Source of the DNA: Alphaproteobacteria bacterium
Lineage (GTDB): Bacteria > Pseudomonadota > Alphaproteobacteria > Micavibrionales > Micavibrionaceae
Assembly (NCBI GenBank): GCA_023140215.1
Contig: JAGLMC010000004.1
Location: 1-42,776 of the forward strand
DNA: 42,776 nucleotides
Direction of reading: 5' to 3'
The notes beneath the pieces were generated by a model. It saw nothing but the letters and a program-made list of their open reading frames with translations, was not told the origin of the DNA and ran no database searches. Each line of letters begins with the position of its first letter. The stretch's first letter is position 1. The position numbers and the translations under genes were made by a program. This document shows positions 10,550-19,086 of this stretch, one piece after another.

Positions 10550-11638
10550 ATGAAATATGTTGATGAATTTCGTGATCCTGATGCTGCGCGGGAATGTGCA
10601 AGGAAGATAGCTGACATAACCACTCAGGAATGGACTATTATGGAGGTTTGCGGTGGGCAAACACATACTATTGTTCGTTTTGGTTTACAGGAAATTTTAC
10701 CGGATAAGATAAATGTTGTACATGGCCCCGGCTGTCCTGTTTGTGTTACACCTTTGGAACAGCTTGATAAAGCAATGGAAATTGCTGCACGTTCCGATGT
10801 TATATTTTGTTCTTTTGGTGATATGTTGCGTGTTCCCGGTTCGGAAGAAGATCTTCGAGGAGTAAAGGCCGGTGGTGGAGATGTGCGGATTGTTTATTCA
10901 CCTCTTGATGCAGTTAAAATCGCAAAAGATAATCCTGATAAACAGGTGGTTTTTTTTGCGGTAGGATTTGAAACAACAGCGCCGGTAAATGCGATGGCGG
11001 TATTTCAGGCTGAACAATATGGCTTGAATAATTTTTTTGTGCTGGTTTCACATGTTCTTGTTCCTCCGGCTATTGAGGCTATTTTATCTTCACCGGAAAA
11101 TAGGGTGCAGGGTTTTCTTGCAGCAGGTCATGTCTGCGCTATAATGGGTTATGAGGAATATTTCCCGCTTGCTGAAAAATATAAAACACCGATAGTTGTT
11201 ACAGGGTTTGAACCTCTTGATATACTTCATGGGGTTTATATGTGTATTAAGCAGCTTGAAGAAGGCAGGTTTGAGGTTGAAAATCAGTATTCCAGAGTTG
11301 TTGATGTTGCAGGAAATCTCGAAGCACAGAATCTTATTCAAAAGATATTTAAGATAGCACCGCGTAAATGGCGCGGTATAGGTGATATTCCTCAAAGTGG
11401 CCTTGTTCTTTCTGATGAATACGAGAGATTTAATGCTGAAACTCGATTTGGTGTGACTCAAACGCAGGTGCAAGAGCCGGAAGAGTGCATTAGCGGACTT
11501 ATTTTGCAAGGGTTGAAAAGGCCAAATGAATGTCCGGCTTTTGGCACAATCTGTACTCCTGAAAAACCATTGGGAGCAACAATGGTTTCCGGAGAGGGTG
11601 CTTGTTCGGCTTATTATAAATATAAAAGGGATGTATAA
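10550..11638 (+). CDS. hypD: Hydrogenase maturation protein HypD
   Basis: [4Fe-4S] scaffold on which CO and cyanide are attached to iron for the [NiFe] site, in complex with HypC and HypE. The 362-residue protein has CGGQTHT with C34, GPGCPVC with C62 and C65, and C-terminal cysteines for the Fe-S cluster ([26 protein letters not shown]). The length is normal for the family. It starts one base after hypC ends and stops two bases before hypE begins. All key cysteines are present, so the protein should be active. Confidence 0.97.
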
Positions 11639-11640
11639 TA

Positions 11641-12693
11641 ATGTCTGGATTTTCCTGTCCTATTCCATTTTCGCTTTCTGATTATCCTCATGTTCTTATG
11701 GCTCATGGAAGTGGTGGCGCTATTATGCAGCGCTTGATTGAAGAGCTTTTTTTGAAGACTTTCAATGATGGACAAGATGTAAATGAAGCTCATGATAGTG
11801 CTGTTTTGGATGTTCCAAAAGAAAGAATTGCAATGTCGAGTGATTCGTTTGTAATTCAGCCCCTTATATTTCCCGGTGGAGATATTGGCTCTCTTTCTGT
11901 TCACGGCACTGTAAATGATCTTGCAATGAGCGGGGCTAGGCCATGTTACCTCAGTTCTTCATTTATTTTGGAAGAGGGGCTTCCAATGGAAGTTCTTGTG
12001 CAAATTGTGCATTCTATGAAAAAAGCGGCTGATGCTGCCGGAGTGAAAATTGTTACCGGTGATACAAAGGTTGTGGAGCGCGGTCATGGTGATGGTATCT
12101 ATATAAATACTACCGGCATAGGATTAGTAAAAGAAGGCGTTAATATCTCTCCGAAGTATGTTCGAGAAGGTGATCTGGTGTTGATTAATGGTGATTTGGG
12201 AAGGCACGGAATGGCCATTATGTCTGTAAGAGAAAGTCTTTCTTTTGAGAGTCCCATAAAAAGTGATAGCACATCTCTTGTGTCGCCTGTCATGGAAATG
12301 ATTGAGGAAAATCTTGATATAAGCTGTATGAGGGATGCTACCCGCGGAGGGTTGGCCGCTGTTTTAAATGAGATTGCTGTTGGCTCAGGTCTTGAGATTC
12401 ACATTGATGAAGCAAAAATTCCAATCAATGAAGCTGTTAGCGGAGCTTGTGAAATTCTTGGATTTGATCCGCTTCATGTTGCTAATGAAGGCCGGTTTGC
12501 TATCTTTATTGCAGAAAAGGATGCCGGTAGAGCGTTGGAAATTTTGTCTAGCTATAAGGAAGATGGGGCAATGCCTTCACAAATTGGAAAAGTAGTAAAT
12601 GGAAAGTCGGGTATGGTTGTTCTTAATACTGCTATAGGTACAAAAAGAATTTTGGATATGCCCGGTGGAGAATTGCTTCCGCGTATATGTTAG
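11641..12693 (+). CDS. hypE: Hydrogenase maturation protein HypE
   Basis: Dehydrates the carbamoylated C-terminal cysteine to a thiocyanate, the source of cyanide ligands for [NiFe] hydrogenase. The 350-residue protein is a PurM-like ATPase with HGSGG near the N-terminus, SSDSFVIQPL, and DATRGGLAAVLNEIA. It ends in the exact PRIC tail, with the cysteine as last residue. HypF, which supplies the carbamoyl group, and HypA/HypB for nickel insertion are not in the window, nor are hydrogenase subunits. They must lie elsewhere if the pathway works. The hypCDE block is tightly packed (gaps of one and two bases). Confidence 0.97.
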   Translation: MSGFSCPIPFSLSDYPHVLMAHGSGGAIMQRLIEELFLKTFNDGQDVNEAHDSAVLDVPKERIAMSSDSFVIQPLIFPGGDIGSLSVHGTVNDLAMSGARPCYLSSSFILEEGLPMEVLVQIVHSMKKAADAAGVKIVTGDTKVVERGHGDGIYINTTGIGLVKEGVNISPKYVREGDLVLINGDLGRHGMAIMSVRESLSFESPIKSDSTSLVSPVMEMIEENLDISCMRDATRGGLAAVLNEIAVGSGLEIHIDEAKIPINEAVSGACEILGFDPLHVANEGRFAIFIAEKDAGRALEILSSYKEDGAMPSQIGKVVNGKSGMVVLNTAIGTKRILDMPGGELLPRIC

Positions 12694-14992: not shown

Positions 14993-16285
14993 ATGGCAAA
15001 TGTAGCTGTTATTGGCGCTCAATGGGGCGATGAAGGAAAAGGAAAAATTGTTGATTGGCTTTCAAGTAGGGCTGATGTTGTTGTGCGTTTTCAAGGCGGT
15101 CATAATGCCGGTCATACGTTGGTTGTTGATGGTGTGACATATAAGTTGCATTTGTTGCCTTCCGGTATTGTGCGTAAGAGTAAGGTTTCTGTTATCGGTA
15201 ATGGAGTTGTTGTTGATCCTTGGGCTTTACTTGCGGAAATTAAATCAATTCGCAATCAGGGTGTTGAAGTGACTCCGGAGAAATTGGTTCTGGCAGAAAA
15301 CGCACCGCTTATTTTGCCTATTCATAGCATTCTTGATGAGGCGATGGAGCGTGTTCGCGGTAATGATGCTATCGGTACAACAAAACGCGGTATTGGGCCG
15401 GCATACGAGGATAAGGTTGCAAGGCGCGGTATTCGTGTTTGTGATCTGGAAGAGCCTGATATGCTAAAGGAAAAACTTGAAGCTTTACTTACGCATCATA
15501 ATGCGTTGCTTAGAGGGCTTGGTGAAAAAGAAGTTAGTTGTGATGATATTTTTAATGCTCTTATGGAGATTAAAGATGAGTTGTTATCTTATAAGGGGAT
15601 TGTCTGGCGTGTGCTTGATGAGGCTCGTAAGAGTGGGAAGAAAATTTTGTTTGAGGGTGCTCAAGGAATGATGCTTGATGTCGATCACGGCACGTATCCT
15701 TTTGTAACATCTTCAAATATGCATCCAGCGCAGGCTGCGGTTGGCTCCGGTATTGGTCTGGATGCGGTTAATTACATTTTAGGAATTGCAAAAGCATATA
15801 CCACCAGAGTTGGTGAAGGGCCTTTTCCAACAGAGCTTGATGATGAAGTTGGGCAATATTTGGGTGAGAAAGGGCATGAGTTTGGCACAACAACCGGACG
15901 AAAGCGCCGTTGTGGTTGGTTTGATGCAGTGAGTGTGCGTCAGGCTGTTATTGTCGGTGGCATTACCGGCATTGCTCTTACAAAGATTGATGTTCTTGAT
16001 GGTCTGGATGAGCTGAAGATATGTGTTGGTTATGAGCTTGATGGAAAGCAAATTGATTATTTTCCTTCTTCACAGGTGAAGCAAGCGCGTGTGAAGCCGG
16101 TATATGAAACTATGGAAGGCTGGAAAGAAAGTACATGCGGTGCTAGGAGCTGGGGAGAATTACCGGCTGCTGCTGTTAAGTACGTAAAGCATCTTGAGGA
16201 ATTGATTGGAGCACCTGTTACTTTACTTTCAACCAGTCCGGAGCGTGATGATACTATACTTATGCATGACCCGTTTCTTGGATAG
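14993..16285 (+). CDS. purA: Adenylosuccinate synthetase PurA
   Basis: Joins IMP and aspartate using GTP, the first committed step to AMP. The 430-residue protein starts [18 protein letters not shown], with the phosphate loop at 7-17. It carries the family motifs [36 protein letters not shown] and the guanine-specifying TKIDVLDGL. The length is that of a complete enzyme. AAGGAT seven bases before the ATG supports the start. It is 64 bases after thiD in the same direction. No obvious terminator follows, although a 6-bp stem (CATACA/TGTATG) lies at about 16310-16331. Confidence 0.97.
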
Positions 16286-16386: not shown

Positions 16387-18558
16387 ATGTCTGAAACACC
16401 TCAGAAAGAAGAAGATTTGTCTAGTAAAGAGGACGATCAGGAAGTCATGCTTGATATGGCTGATGATGGTCAAGATCAAGTTGAAGTTGAAGATCAAGCT
16501 GAAGAGCAAGATCAGGAAGTATTAATTTCTGAAGAAACTGAAATAGTTTCCGGAGCTGTTAGTTTTGATAAGGATATTGATATTTTAGCACTTGATCCTC
16601 TTCCAGAGCGTGATATTGGAAGTGTGAAGGCGTATAGAGCTGTTGGGCGTAACAGGAATACTGATGATTATTTTGCTCTGGTGTGTGAACGTAGTCTTGT
16701 TCCTCGTATAAAAGCTGCTGTTGCTTATGATCGTATTGAACATTCTTCTTTAATCAAGCTTGTCGATTTTGGGGTTTTGTATTGGCCTGAGGCAAGGCAG
16801 GAACGTTATGTTTTTATATATAAAGATACTATGGGAAGTCCTCTATTAAAAAGGGGTGAGGATAATTTTCTAAAATGGAAGCAAGATGCTGTTATGGATA
16901 TCATCGTTAAACCGATGATTGGTATGTTGCAGGAGTTCAGGGATAGAGATTTTTTTCATGGTGCTATTTGTCCCGAAAATATATTTAATGCTGATAAGTT
17001 TGATAATATTAAAAGTGTTGTTCTGGGGGATTGTTTATCTGCTCCCGCATCTTATTTCCAGAGTGTTCTTTATGAAACAATAGAGCGATCATTAATTGAA
17101 CCTATTGCGCGTGGTGTTGGAACGCCTTCTGATGATTTATATGCTTTTGGCGTATCGTTGGCTGTGATTATGCGCAGTAATGATCCTTTGGAGGGGTTGG
17201 ATGATTTGGAAATTATCAAGCGGAAAATTGAGTATGGTACTTATTCTGCTATTACCGGTAAGGATCGATTTAAGGGGCTTATTCTTGAACTTTTGCGCGG
17301 TATTTTACATGATAATCCGACTCAACGATGGACTATTGATGAGGTGTTGATCTGGATGGACGGTCGCCGTCTTAGTCCAAAGCAATCTCAGAAACAGAGA
17401 AAAGCGCCCCGTCCTTTTGTGTTTATAGATCAGAAGTATTTCTTAATTCAGATTTTAGCTATGGATATTGGAAAACATCCTGATGAGACACTTAAGATTA
17501 TAGAGAATGATGAGTTGGTACAATGGCTTGAACGTTCGGTTGAAGATGAAGATGTTTCTTTGCAGGTTCAAGAAGCCAGAGAGTTTGCTAGAGAGGGTGG
17601 TGCTGTATCTGATTATCATAATCGTTTGTCTGCCGGAGTGGCTTTAGCGCTTTATCCGATGTCACCGATTTATTATAAGGGGCGGCGTTTTAATGGTGAT
17701 GGAATTGGAACATCATTGGCTGAGGCTATTGTTCTTAGGCGGGATACAAAAGTGTTTTCGGAACTTTTTAGGAATAATATTGCTATAAGGTGGTTAGCTG
17801 CAACACAAAATCCGGGTTTGGATGTATCTATTTTGCTTAATAAATTTGATGCTTGCCGTACTTTTTTGTTGCAAAACAGGGTTGGGTTTGGGGTTGAGCG
17901 GTGTTTGTATTTTTTATGTCCGGAAGCGCATTGTTTGAGTGAAAAACTGAAAAGGTATTTTGTGACGACACCTGAACAGATGATAGATGCTTTTGAGGAT
18001 ATGTGTAAGAGAGGTGAGTCTCCGGCTTTTTTTCTTGATCGTCATACTATAGCTTTTTTATCACTTAAAGATCCAAGATGTATTGATGCGTATTTATATG
18101 ATCTTGGTTCATCAGAGGAATATAGAAAGATTTTGGGTAATTTAAAAGTCTTGGCAAGAATACAAGGGCGTAGAAAATTGAAACAGTTTCCTAATATTGC
18201 CAAGGCTTTTGTTGAGATGTTACCTGTTGTTTATGATCGTTATCATGATAATAAATCCAGAGTTAAAATAGAGAAAAATGTTAATAATTGTGCTAGTTCC
18301 GGTGATTTGGTTGGTATGGCCGGTTTGTTGAATAATACAGATACGCAACAAAAGGATATTACATCTTTTAAACAAGCAATGTATGAATATTCTACTTTGA
18401 AAAAAGAGTGGAATGATTTAGAGGAACGTTTGAAGGATAAAGCAACATTTGGTTATGGGATTGGAAGTGAGATTTCTGCCATTATTTCCAGTATTTTGTC
18501 GGGAGTGATTATTTTATGTATTGCTTTTTATTTTATATTAGGACAAACAGGTTTTTAG
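16387..18558 (+). CDS. Membrane-anchored pseudokinase-like protein, unknown function
   Basis: From ATG 16387 the protein has 723 residues: a very acidic Asp/Glu/Gln-rich N-terminus (1-70), a protein-kinase-like region (about 75-330), a large unassigned region, and one C-terminal membrane helix (about 696-718) that would leave the bulk in the cytoplasm. Kinase landmarks are present but degenerate. The catalytic loop reads HGAICPEN (191-198) instead of HRDLKPEN, losing Asp and Lys. The DFG motif is DCL at 215, and the VAIK lysine is not seen. DDLYAFGVSL and NPTQRWT match subdomains IX and XI. It is likely a pseudokinase scaffold. An in-frame TTG at 16360 is less likely than this ATG, which has AAGG nine bases upstream. 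It is followed after nine bases by a small membrane protein, a probable partner. Confidence 0.75.
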   Translation: MSETPQKEEDLSSKEDDQEVMLDMADDGQDQVEVEDQAEEQDQEVLISEETEIVSGAVSFDKDIDILALDPLPERDIGSVKAYRAVGRNRNTDDYFALVCERSLVPRIKAAVAYDRIEHSSLIKLVDFGVLYWPEARQERYVFIYKDTMGSPLLKRGEDNFLKWKQDAVMDIIVKPMIGMLQEFRDRDFFHGAICPENIFNADKFDNIKSVVLGDCLSAPASYFQSVLYETIERSLIEPIARGVGTPSDDLYAFGVSLAVIMRSNDPLEGLDDLEIIKRKIEYGTYSAITGKDRFKGLILELLRGILHDNPTQRWTIDEVLIWMDGRRLSPKQSQKQRKAPRPFVFIDQKYFLIQILAMDIGKHPDETLKIIENDELVQWLERSVEDEDVSLQVQEAREFAREGGAVSDYHNRLSAGVALALYPMSPIYYKGRRFNGDGIGTSLAEAIVLRRDTKVFSELFRNNIAIRWLAATQNPGLDVSILLNKFDACRTFLLQNRVGFGVERCLYFLCPEAHCLSEKLKRYFVTTPEQMIDAFEDMCKRGESPAFFLDRHTIAFLSLKDPRCIDAYLYDLGSSEEYRKILGNLKVLARIQGRRKLKQFPNIAKAFVEMLPVVYDRYHDNKSRVKIEKNVNNCASSGDLVGMAGLLNNTDTQQKDITSFKQAMYEYSTLKKEWNDLEERLKDKATFGYGIGSEISAIISSILSGVIILCIAFYFILGQTGF

Positions 18559-18567
18559 GGACTGTAG

Positions 18568-19086
18568 ATGGCAAAAAAAAATGTAACAACCAAGGGTGTA
18601 ACTAATAAGCGAAAAGGAAAGCTTAGCAGTAAAAGGCAGATTGTTTTTATTTTCATTGTTTCGGTTGCTGTTGTTTTTCTACCAACGACTATTATTTTGA
18701 TAATTGGTTTGTTACCTTCTTTTGTTTCTGTTTTTGTTGATAAAAGTAAGAAAAAAATCACGCCCATTACTGTTGGTGCGTTAAATTTAGCTGGATGTTC
18801 ACCGTTTTTATTTGAACTTTGGGTGCAAGGTAATACGGTTGGTGATGCTATGAGAATTATTGCAGATCCTATGTCTGTTGTTGTTATGTATTCTGCTGCG
18901 GCTGTTGGATATCTTTTAGATTGGGCGGTTACCGGTATGATTTCCGGTTTTTTATATCAAAAAGGGATTGTTCGTCAGGATGTTATTGTAAATCGTCAAA
19001 ATGAACTTGTTTCTCGGTGGGGAAAAGAAGTTACAGGAGCTATAAGGCTTGATGAGTATGGGTTTGCTGTTGAAAAAGAGAGGTAA
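18568..19086 (+). CDS. Small membrane protein paired with the pseudokinase
   Basis: The 172-residue protein has a Lys/Arg/Thr-rich cytoplasmic N-terminus (1-24), a long hydrophobic stretch (25-57) and a second membrane segment (about 102-128). A moderately hydrophobic section lies between them (NLAGCSPFLFELW). The polar C-terminus includes LVSRWGKEV. No signal-peptide cleavage site or enzyme motif is evident. It begins nine bases after the stop of the pseudokinase gene, so the two are almost surely one operon. The kinase-like protein's C-terminal membrane helix could contact it. I know of no named function. The pairing is the main clue. Confidence 0.75.
   Translation: MAKKNVTTKGVTNKRKGKLSSKRQIVFIFIVSVAVVFLPTTIILIIGLLPSFVSVFVDKSKKKITPITVGALNLAGCSPFLFELWVQGNTVGDAMRIIADPMSVVVMYSAAAVGYLLDWAVTGMISGFLYQKGIVRQDVIVNRQNELVSRWGKEVTGAIRLDEYGFAVEKER

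What the first reader, a model, noticed from the sequence alone, without database searches (positions are those of the whole stretch)
16387..19086. Pseudokinase and small membrane protein pair of unknown function
A 723-residue protein with an acidic N-terminus, a kinase-like fold lacking the catalytic Asp and Lys (HGAICPEN), a large unassigned region and a C-terminal membrane helix is co-encoded with a two-span membrane protein nine bases downstream. I recall similar pairs in other alphaproteobacteria without a function, which would make this a conserved but undescribed membrane complex.
Basis: partly seen in the sequence, partly recalled or inferred. Interest (0 to 1): 0.6.

Follow-up and report, generated by a model that had tools for sequence, protein, structure and literature searches.

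The report
Alphaproteobacterial dead-kinase membrane protein pair
Two neighbouring genes encode a kinase-shaped protein that has lost its catalytic residues and a small membrane protein; the pair recurs in many Alphaproteobacteria, the two proteins appear to have changed together as partners do, and we found no described function.

Summary
The finding holds. K (16387-18558, 723 aa) has a protein-kinase fold at residues 54-327 (AlphaFold2 mean pLDDT 89.5; Z 22 to WNK3); none of the 69 + 76 family sequences examined keeps the catalytic Lys, HRD-Asp and DFG-Asp together. S (18568-19086, 172 aa) starts nine bases after K's stop. The window is from a Micavibrio-like alphaproteobacterium. K is in 56 of 58 genomes of its order searched and 131 of 385 of the class; S lies beside it in nearly every case seen, and two genomes that have them apart hold both. 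The commonest site is purA-K-S-rpoH. New evidence for a complex: over 176 K-S pairs, the strongest couplings (K621-S150, K667-S143, K674-S136) exceed 30 shuffled pairings, carry opposite charges, and two of them, with weaker ones, follow one antiparallel helix register. Ancestry accounts for part of the signal. The role is inferred. 124 of 131 K-bearing genomes carry a flagellar marker; in Micavibrio-like loci 46 of 59 pairs abut Tad-pilus genes. But seven K-bearing genomes lack both flagellar markers and half lack the Tad marker, so it is not an obligate part of either. I read it as an undescribed pseudokinase family with a dedicated membrane partner, probably a non-catalytic scaffold or regulator.

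The parts
16387..18558 (+). K: 723-aa pseudokinase with a C-terminal membrane helix
   Evidence: ORF; K in 56 of 58 genomes of the order, own included; model mean pLDDT 89.5, pTM 0.83
16387..16542 (+). K residues 1-52: acidic tail, low model confidence, not conserved
   Evidence: pLDDT under 50 at 1-4 and 10-52; 22 D/E, net -20 here but only 14 of 63 members <= -5
16546..17367 (+). K residues 54-327: kinase fold without catalytic residues
   Evidence: VIA-align Z 22.1 to WNK3 5o21_B, rmsd 3.0 over 254 residues; profile match to kinases E 2.6e-8
16957..16980 (+). HGAICPEN, the degenerate HRD loop (residues 191-198)
   Evidence: position 193 is not Asp in 69 of 69 and in 75 of 76 unique class sequences; Asn198 kept in 67 of 69 and 72 of 76
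17392..18438 (+). K residues 336-684: unassigned, mostly helical region with near-invariant W380, E504, Y508, C516, D551, H553, D657
   Evidence: no consistent Pfam family and no convincing solved relative by sequence; C516 in 69 of 69 and 76 of 76, D551 in 69 and 74, H553 in 66 and 70
18337..18435 (+). K helix 651-683, proposed to pack antiparallel on S
   Evidence: couplings K667-S143, K671-S140, K674-S136; opposite charges at K679-S134
18439..18540 (+). K C-terminal membrane helix 685-718
   Evidence: helix in the model; mean hydropathy peak near residue 707; K694-S118 covariation
18568..19086 (+). S: 172-aa membrane protein, proposed partner of K
   Evidence: ORF; S in 55 of 58 genomes of the order, own included; model mean pLDDT 91.9, helices 21-36, 38-47, 49-57, 64-87, 91-99, 101-151
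18868..19020 (+). S long helix 101-151: third hydrophobic segment running on as a polar helix, proposed K-contact side
   Evidence: model; hydropathy; couplings of S118, S136, S140, S143 and S150 to K and the S134 charge table
14993..16285 (+). purA, the commonest upstream neighbour; context, not part of the pair
   Evidence: PF00709 E 9.6e-181; directly upstream in 40 of 61 Micavibrio-like and 32 of 59 class loci with a gene upstream

Best explanation
K and S are two subunits of one inner-membrane complex. K is a cytosolic protein-kinase fold that has lost catalysis, followed by a conserved helical region and a C-terminal membrane helix. S is a small membrane protein whose long helix leaves the membrane and lies antiparallel along K's last long helix, held by charge pairs. 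The kinase fold most likely serves as a non-catalytic binding or regulatory module, and S anchors or orients it. Status of the steps: kinase fold and loss of the catalytic residues, shown by prediction and alignment; conserved pairing, shown; physical contact, indicated by covariation but not shown biochemically; role as scaffold or regulator, inferred; the process served, a guess. My best guess is regulation or assembly at the envelope of motile, mostly flagellate cells (about 0.3); the complex itself about 0.85.
For: Kinase fold. Catalytic loss: no examined sequence has the triad; HRD-Asp absent in 69 of 69 and 75 of 76, DFG-Asp absent in 69 of 69 and 76 of 76, beta-3 Lys absent in 69 of 69 and 75 of 76 (the DFG position follows the titin alignment, the Lys position is my assignment). 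Pairing; S found elsewhere in G275 and G359. Contact: top inter-protein couplings z 8.1 (K621-S150), 7.9 (K667-S143), 6.6 (K674-S136) and 6.6 (K617-S112) against a highest z of 5.8 in 30 shuffled pairings, tested for K 600-723 only. K667-S143, K674-S136 and the weaker K671-S140 (5.0), K694-S118 (4.4) and K704-S106 (4.3) have residue sums of 810 to 812, one antiparallel register. A tree-aware charge test put K694-S118 first of 26452 pairs (p 2.4e-8, 11 shared changes, all compensating) and K674-S136 25th. Charge tables over 176 rows: K621 negative never faces S150 negative; K679-S134 gives minus/plus 28 and plus/minus 24 (with 16 minus/minus and 4 plus/plus). Motility: FlhA in 118 of 131 K-bearing and 103 of 254 K-lacking class genomes, FliG in 6 of the 13 without FlhA, 66 of 70 against 51 of 103 families, K-S-K-S-flhA-motA-like in one genome.
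Against: Covariation rests on 176 pairs and is partly ancestry, which pair shuffling does not keep: couplings off the register such as K617-S112 (6.6) and K384-S69 (6.5) are as strong as K674-S136; K671-S140, K694-S118 and K704-S106 are below the shuffled maximum; and the top 100 couplings are not enriched in K's membrane helix (4 seen, 3.9 expected). In the tree test K667-S143 ranks 961st, K621-S150 2076th and K622-S154 20724th, and second place (K431-S130) is off the register. K667 and K674 are Glu in only 30 of 76 class sequences each. The window itself has Ser at 694 and Ile at S134, so two of the proposed charge pairs are missing here. No complex was modelled. The flagellar link may be shared ancestry: seven K-bearing genomes lack both FlhA and FliG, 103 FlhA genomes lack K, and purA and rpoH are not motility genes. 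At several other sites neighbours are unrelated (EF-P, thiolase, a class I tRNA synthetase).
Confidence: 0.68

Rival explanations
1. K-S is an accessory part of the Tad (Flp) pilus machine.
For: In 62 loci I took as Micavibrio-like, 46 of the 59 with a gene after S have a Tad-cluster gene directly there on the same strand (clusters named by Pfam).
Against: 65 of 131 K-bearing class genomes lack the RcpC/CpaB family, and the association is weak (66 of 131 against 89 of 254, p 0.004 ignoring ancestry). In 66 other loci with a gene after S (15 Azospirillaceae-like, 51 class) none has a gene of those Tad clusters within three genes (diverged TadE/TadG could be missed by that BLAST clustering). In the window's own genome the cpa genes are on another contig.
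Confidence: 0.1
2. The conserved part of K is an enzyme: the region 500-560 with near-invariant E504, C516, D551 and H553 is an active site, regulated by the pseudokinase and S.
For: C516 in 69 of 69 and 76 of 76; D551 in 69 and 74; H553 in 66 and 70; kept in five K copies without a neighbouring S.
Against: No enzyme family or solved chain matches convincingly by sequence. The kinase C-lobe is conserved about as well (18 of 180 positions at 95% or more against 8 of 100). I had no coordinates to see whether these residues meet; they may be structural.
Confidence: 0.15
3. K-S serves a housekeeping or stress function tied to its purA-rpoH position.
For: A sigma-factor gene taken as rpoH lies within three genes after S in 31 of 51 class loci, and purA directly upstream in 32 of 59 (for the name); K is found in several genomes of 1.4 to 2 Mb.
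Against: Neighbours are mixed biosynthetic genes, rpoH is on the opposite strand, the pair is elsewhere in many loci, and K was not found in 254 of 385 class genomes.
Confidence: 0.2
4. K is an active but atypical kinase or transferase.
For: WNK kinases, which place the catalytic Lys elsewhere (recalled), are the best fold matches, although rows within 1 Z of them are tied; Asn198 is retained in 67 of 69.
Against: HRD-Asp and DFG-Asp are both gone in all but one of 145 sequences, and that one lacks the DFG-Asp.
Confidence: 0.05

Closest known systems
GLW pseudokinases (described in PMC12599244; section 9 read)
   Different: K has HGA/HRA-type residues in place of HRD, not GLW, and no LLLL/W in place of the beta-3 Lys; K has about 350 further residues before the membrane helix and a partner S
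EssB/YukC (type VII secretion pseudokinase of Firmicutes; passages of PMC12599244 seen)
   Same: Membrane-bound pseudokinase with degraded catalytic motifs acting as a non-catalytic part of a membrane machine
   Different: K's membrane helix is at its very C-terminus with no domain beyond it; full-length K was met only in Alphaproteobacteria in our samples
Bacterial Hanks-type kinases (M. tuberculosis PknA, S. aureus PknB/Stk1)
   Same: Kinase fold (Z 20.5 to 21.1)
   Different: Catalytic residues lost in K; the extracytoplasmic sensor domains of those kinases (recalled) have no counterpart in K
TYK2/JAK JH2 pseudokinase domains
   Same: Fold, Z about 21
   Different: Different architecture; a fold match only

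Membership tests
Protein kinase fold superfamily (Hanks type) | Bilobal kinase fold and profile homology | tested here: met
Active Ser/Thr protein kinase | Beta-3 Lys, HRD Asp, DFG Asp | tested here: not met
   No triad in 69 + 76 sequences; one class sequence keeps HRD-Asp (L168), another a Lys at position 99 (L222)
GLW pseudokinase family | GLW in place of HRD | tested here: not met
   H191 in 65 of 69 and 69 of 76; 192 mostly G or R, 193 mostly A, S or N
GLW pseudokinase family | LLLL/W replacing the beta-3 Lys | tested here: not met
   Positions 97-100 read A, L/I, V/I, C in most of 69 members
EssB/YukC | Domain beyond the single membrane helix (recalled) | tested here: not met
   K ends five residues after its membrane helix
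EssB/YukC | Type VII secretion locus | tested here: inconclusive
   Not seen among the neighbours that were annotated; no genome-wide search was made
ActPs1-3, CP1, DYD and DLHK pseudokinase families | Taxa, motifs and domains given in PMC12599244 | not tested
   No profiles at hand. As described, CP1 and DLHK lack membrane segments, DLHK keeps the HRD-Asp, and DYD is from actinobacteria and firmicutes; ActPs2 and ActPs3 sections not read
LanL, class IV lanthionine synthetase (NF038150) | Curated score cut-off 650 bits | tested here: not met
   17.8 bits
MAD6 defence kinase (NF047741) | Curated score cut-off 460 bits | tested here: not met
   16.1 bits
Tad pilus machine | Presence tied to Tad genes | tested here: not met
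   65 of 131 K-bearing genomes have no RcpC match
Flagellar machine | Presence tied to flagellar genes | tested here: not met
   124 of 131 have FlhA or FliG, but seven have neither
Any family for S | Match to a curated model or solved fold | tested here: inconclusive
   No Pfam or NCBIfam family for the window's S; scattered weak NCBIfam matches among 71 members; no PDB fold match at E <= 0.001

The most novel reading that the evidence does not exclude
K-S is an undescribed inner-membrane complex of Alphaproteobacteria in which a dead kinase, locked to a dedicated membrane partner by an antiparallel charged helix pair, controls assembly or activity of surface organelles (flagellum, Tad pilus) from the cytosolic face, possibly through a new functional site around C516, D551 and H553.
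Probability: 0.25. Interest if true: 0.75.

Novelty: new variant of a known kind. Interest (0 to 1): 0.52.

Why it matters
A 2025 review (PMC12599244; abstract, passages and three sections seen) calls bacterial pseudokinases largely unexplored and lists seven families; the nearest in outline, GLW, does not fit. K-S would be a pseudokinase family with an identifiable membrane partner and a predicted interface down to residue pairs, present in 131 of 385 sampled alphaproteobacterial genomes and in named Azospirillum strains. That makes a non-catalytic kinase function testable by charge-swap genetics. Two Azospirillum records name K a serine/threonine protein kinase, which is probably misleading.

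Tried and rejected
Tad-pilus membership: suggested by Micavibrio-like neighbourhoods, rejected as general. Internal repeat in the C-terminal region (335-425 against 420-520): hhalign probability 12.9% (one search printed nothing), not claimed. FlhF as a marker of polar flagella: the model matched all 80 genomes tried and all 14 controls, only 2 of 80 over the cut-off, inconclusive. S-less K copies as a test of the interface: three second copies carry R667 and Q674, but Glu at these positions is also lost in many S-paired members, so I do not count it as evidence. Fold search with S found nothing at E <= 0.001. The structure tool gave no coordinates, so distances among C516, D551 and H553 were not measured. 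Phages: no match. Plasmids: five Azospirillum records and one partial Paraburkholderia match over a quarter of the query. Phylum sample: 8 of 249 genomes matched at E <= 1e-10, six full-length and all in this class, two only over 148-313 and 163-420 of the profile. First genome-contig scan: 13 stretches, none confirmed; the second confirmed 252 and kept 80. Dropped before counting: G121 and G286, weak partial K matches (133 to 131). Alignments A3 and A4 hold the window plus 68 and 70 of the 80 loci kept. Family-level FlhA counts ignore ancestry among families. Paper searches that listed nothing on the pair: (listings and abstract beginnings only); PMC12599244 was seen as outline, passages and sections 9, 10 and 12.
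Full report
What is there. The window is contig C51 of an alphaproteobacterial genome; the nearest named records are Micavibrio sp. and unnamed Alphaproteobacteria MAGs, so I call it Micavibrio-like (the order name Micavibrionales is recalled). K runs 16387-18558 and S 18568-19086, nine bases apart. Upstream are a phosphomannomutase-family gene, a phosphomethylpyrimidine-kinase gene and purA; downstream the cpn60 and cpn10 genes on the opposite strand.

K is a pseudokinase. The window protein alone barely registers in Pfam (E 0.0038), but 59 of 69 family members match the kinase model at E<=0.1, and the family profile matches solved kinases at E 2.6e-8. AlphaFold2 with 69 sequences gave mean pLDDT 89.5 and pTM 0.83; residues 54-327 superpose on WNK3 at Z 22.1, and TYK2/JAK pseudokinase domains and PknA follow at about 21, nearly tied. 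The HRD Asp is absent in 69 of 69 aligned members and 75 of 76 unique class sequences, the DFG Asp in 69 of 69 and 76 of 76, the beta-3 Lys in 69 of 69 and 75 of 76. The alignment to titin kinase places G214 as the DFG glycine; the Lys position is my assignment.

The rest of K. Residues 1-52 have low model confidence; the strong acidity here is not shared by the family. Residues 336-684 are mostly helical and match no consistent Pfam family or convincing solved chain by sequence. They hold near-invariant residues, among them W380, Y508, C516, D551, H553 and D657, although the kinase C-lobe has the highest mean conservation of the stretches compared. The last helix, 685-718, is a membrane segment.

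S. The model (mean pLDDT 91.9) has helices 21-36, 38-47, 49-57, 64-87, 91-99 and a 51-residue helix 101-151. Family hydropathy shows three hydrophobic stretches, around 24-50, 72-84 and 102-126. The positive N-terminus (net +7.4) suggests N-in; a kinked or re-entrant first segment followed by two spans fits the charges best, which is inference. No family or fold was found.

Distribution and pairing. Of 58 genomes of the order (its own included) 56 have K and 55 have S; of the 54 with both, 53 have them adjacent and on one strand by their coordinates. In the class, 131 of 385 genomes have K after dropping two weak partial matches. S follows 83 of 90 class K genes, some counted twice. Of the seven misses one runs into a contig end, two rows are one gene (G275), three are second K copies whose genomes have S beside the other K (G373, G153, G192), and one is G359; G275 and G359 hold S elsewhere. 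Full-length K was met only in Alphaproteobacteria in a sample of 249 genomes of the phylum. Two genomes have the whole pair in tandem (G409, G190), and a third, of G409's family, has two K copies 0.7 kb apart (G332).

Neighbourhood. I fetched 60 class loci from 58 of the 131 K-bearing genomes, chosen by me for spread and contig length. purA is directly upstream in 32 of the 59 with a gene there, and the gene taken as rpoH lies within three genes after S in 31 of 51. A common order is c17-serA-hisZ-purA-K-S, then rpoH and a pseudouridine synthase on the other strand; c17 had no Pfam match, but a phosphoserine transaminase (serC) is named two genes before hisZ in one Azospirillum record, with rpoH so named after S. 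In 62 loci I took as Micavibrio-like, 46 of the 59 with a gene after S have a Tad gene directly there. In G190 the order is K-S-K-S-flhA-motA/exbB family-sigma-54 activator. In L193 GGDEF/EAL genes flank the pair, and related clusters lie beside it in Niveispirillum and AAP38 loci. Elsewhere neighbours are unrelated.

A physical complex. From 176 unique pairs, mean-field coupling analysis gave inter-protein peaks at K621-S150 (z 8.1), K667-S143 (7.9), K674-S136 (6.6) and K617-S112 (6.6), against a highest z of 5.8 in 30 shuffled pairings (K 600-723 only). K667-S143 and K674-S136, with the weaker K671-S140 (5.0), K694-S118 (4.4) and K704-S106 (4.3), share residue sums of 810 to 812: one antiparallel register running from cytosol into membrane, consistent with the two helices of the separate models. 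K621-S150 is a separate contact. A tree-aware test of charge changes put K694-S118 first of 26452 pairs, with 11 shared changes, all compensating; K674-S136 ranked 25th. The charge tables fit: K621 is negative with S150 positive in 72 of 176 rows and neutral with S150 negative in 65, never negative with negative; K679-S134 splits 28 to 24 between the two polarities, with 20 like-charged rows. The window has D621-R150, E667-R143 and E674-R136, but Ser694 with Asp118 and Glu679 with Ile134.

Limits of that evidence. Shuffling pairs does not keep shared ancestry. Off-register couplings such as K617-S112 and K384-S69 are as strong as K674-S136, and the top 100 couplings are not enriched in K's membrane helix (4 seen, 3.9 expected). 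In the tree test K667-S143 ranks 961st (9 shared of 36 and 40 changes), K621-S150 2076th (3 shared of 11 and 25) and K622-S154 20724th; second place, K431-S130, is off the register. Glu at 667 and at 674 is present in only 30 of 76 class sequences each.

Function. FlhA is in 118 of 131 K-bearing and 103 of 254 K-lacking class genomes. Six of the 13 exceptions have FliG, so 124 of 131 carry a flagellar marker; seven do not, three of them in one family (f88). By family, 66 of 70 with K include an FlhA genome against 51 of 103 without. Ancestry is not controlled. The Tad marker RcpC is in 66 of 131 against 89 of 254. I therefore regard K-S as neither a flagellar nor a Tad part, but as a membrane complex found mostly in flagellate lineages, most likely a scaffold or regulator.

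Known relatives. PMC12599244 lists seven bacterial pseudokinase families; GLW is nearest in outline but its defining motifs are not met, and the others were not tested with profiles. EssB/YukC works in a comparable non-catalytic way but differs in architecture. Two Azospirillum records call K a serine/threonine protein kinase and S hypothetical. My searches listed no paper on the pair; preprints and most subscription papers were not searchable.

Verdict. Real, conserved, probably a complex, function open. Interest 0.52.

Noticed in passing
L207 (G409), L223 (G190); G332 by coordinates: Tandem duplication of the whole K-S unit in two families (G409, G190); G332, of G409's family, has two K copies 0.7 kb apart, the gap not read.
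   Followed up: partly
L229, L231, L251: Second K copies without S, beside a divergent glyoxalase-family gene (Pfam checked in L231 only); they keep C516, D551 and H553.
   Followed up: partly
L191 (G000:C29:1-10987): The window genome's cpaA to cpaF genes lie on another contig; no gene of the TadE/TadG clusters was seen on it by BLAST clustering.
   Followed up: partly
window 10550-12690: A HypD gene and an AIR-synthase-family gene that may be hypE (hydrogenase maturation).
   Followed up: no
L159:5911-9543: Two ORFs after S (472 and 734 aa; the first overlaps the end of S) with no Pfam match at E 0.01.
   Followed up: no
L220, L228: A GGDEF-domain protein (Pfam checked in L228; same BLAST cluster in L220) divergently transcribed from K in two relatives with small genomes.
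   Followed up: no
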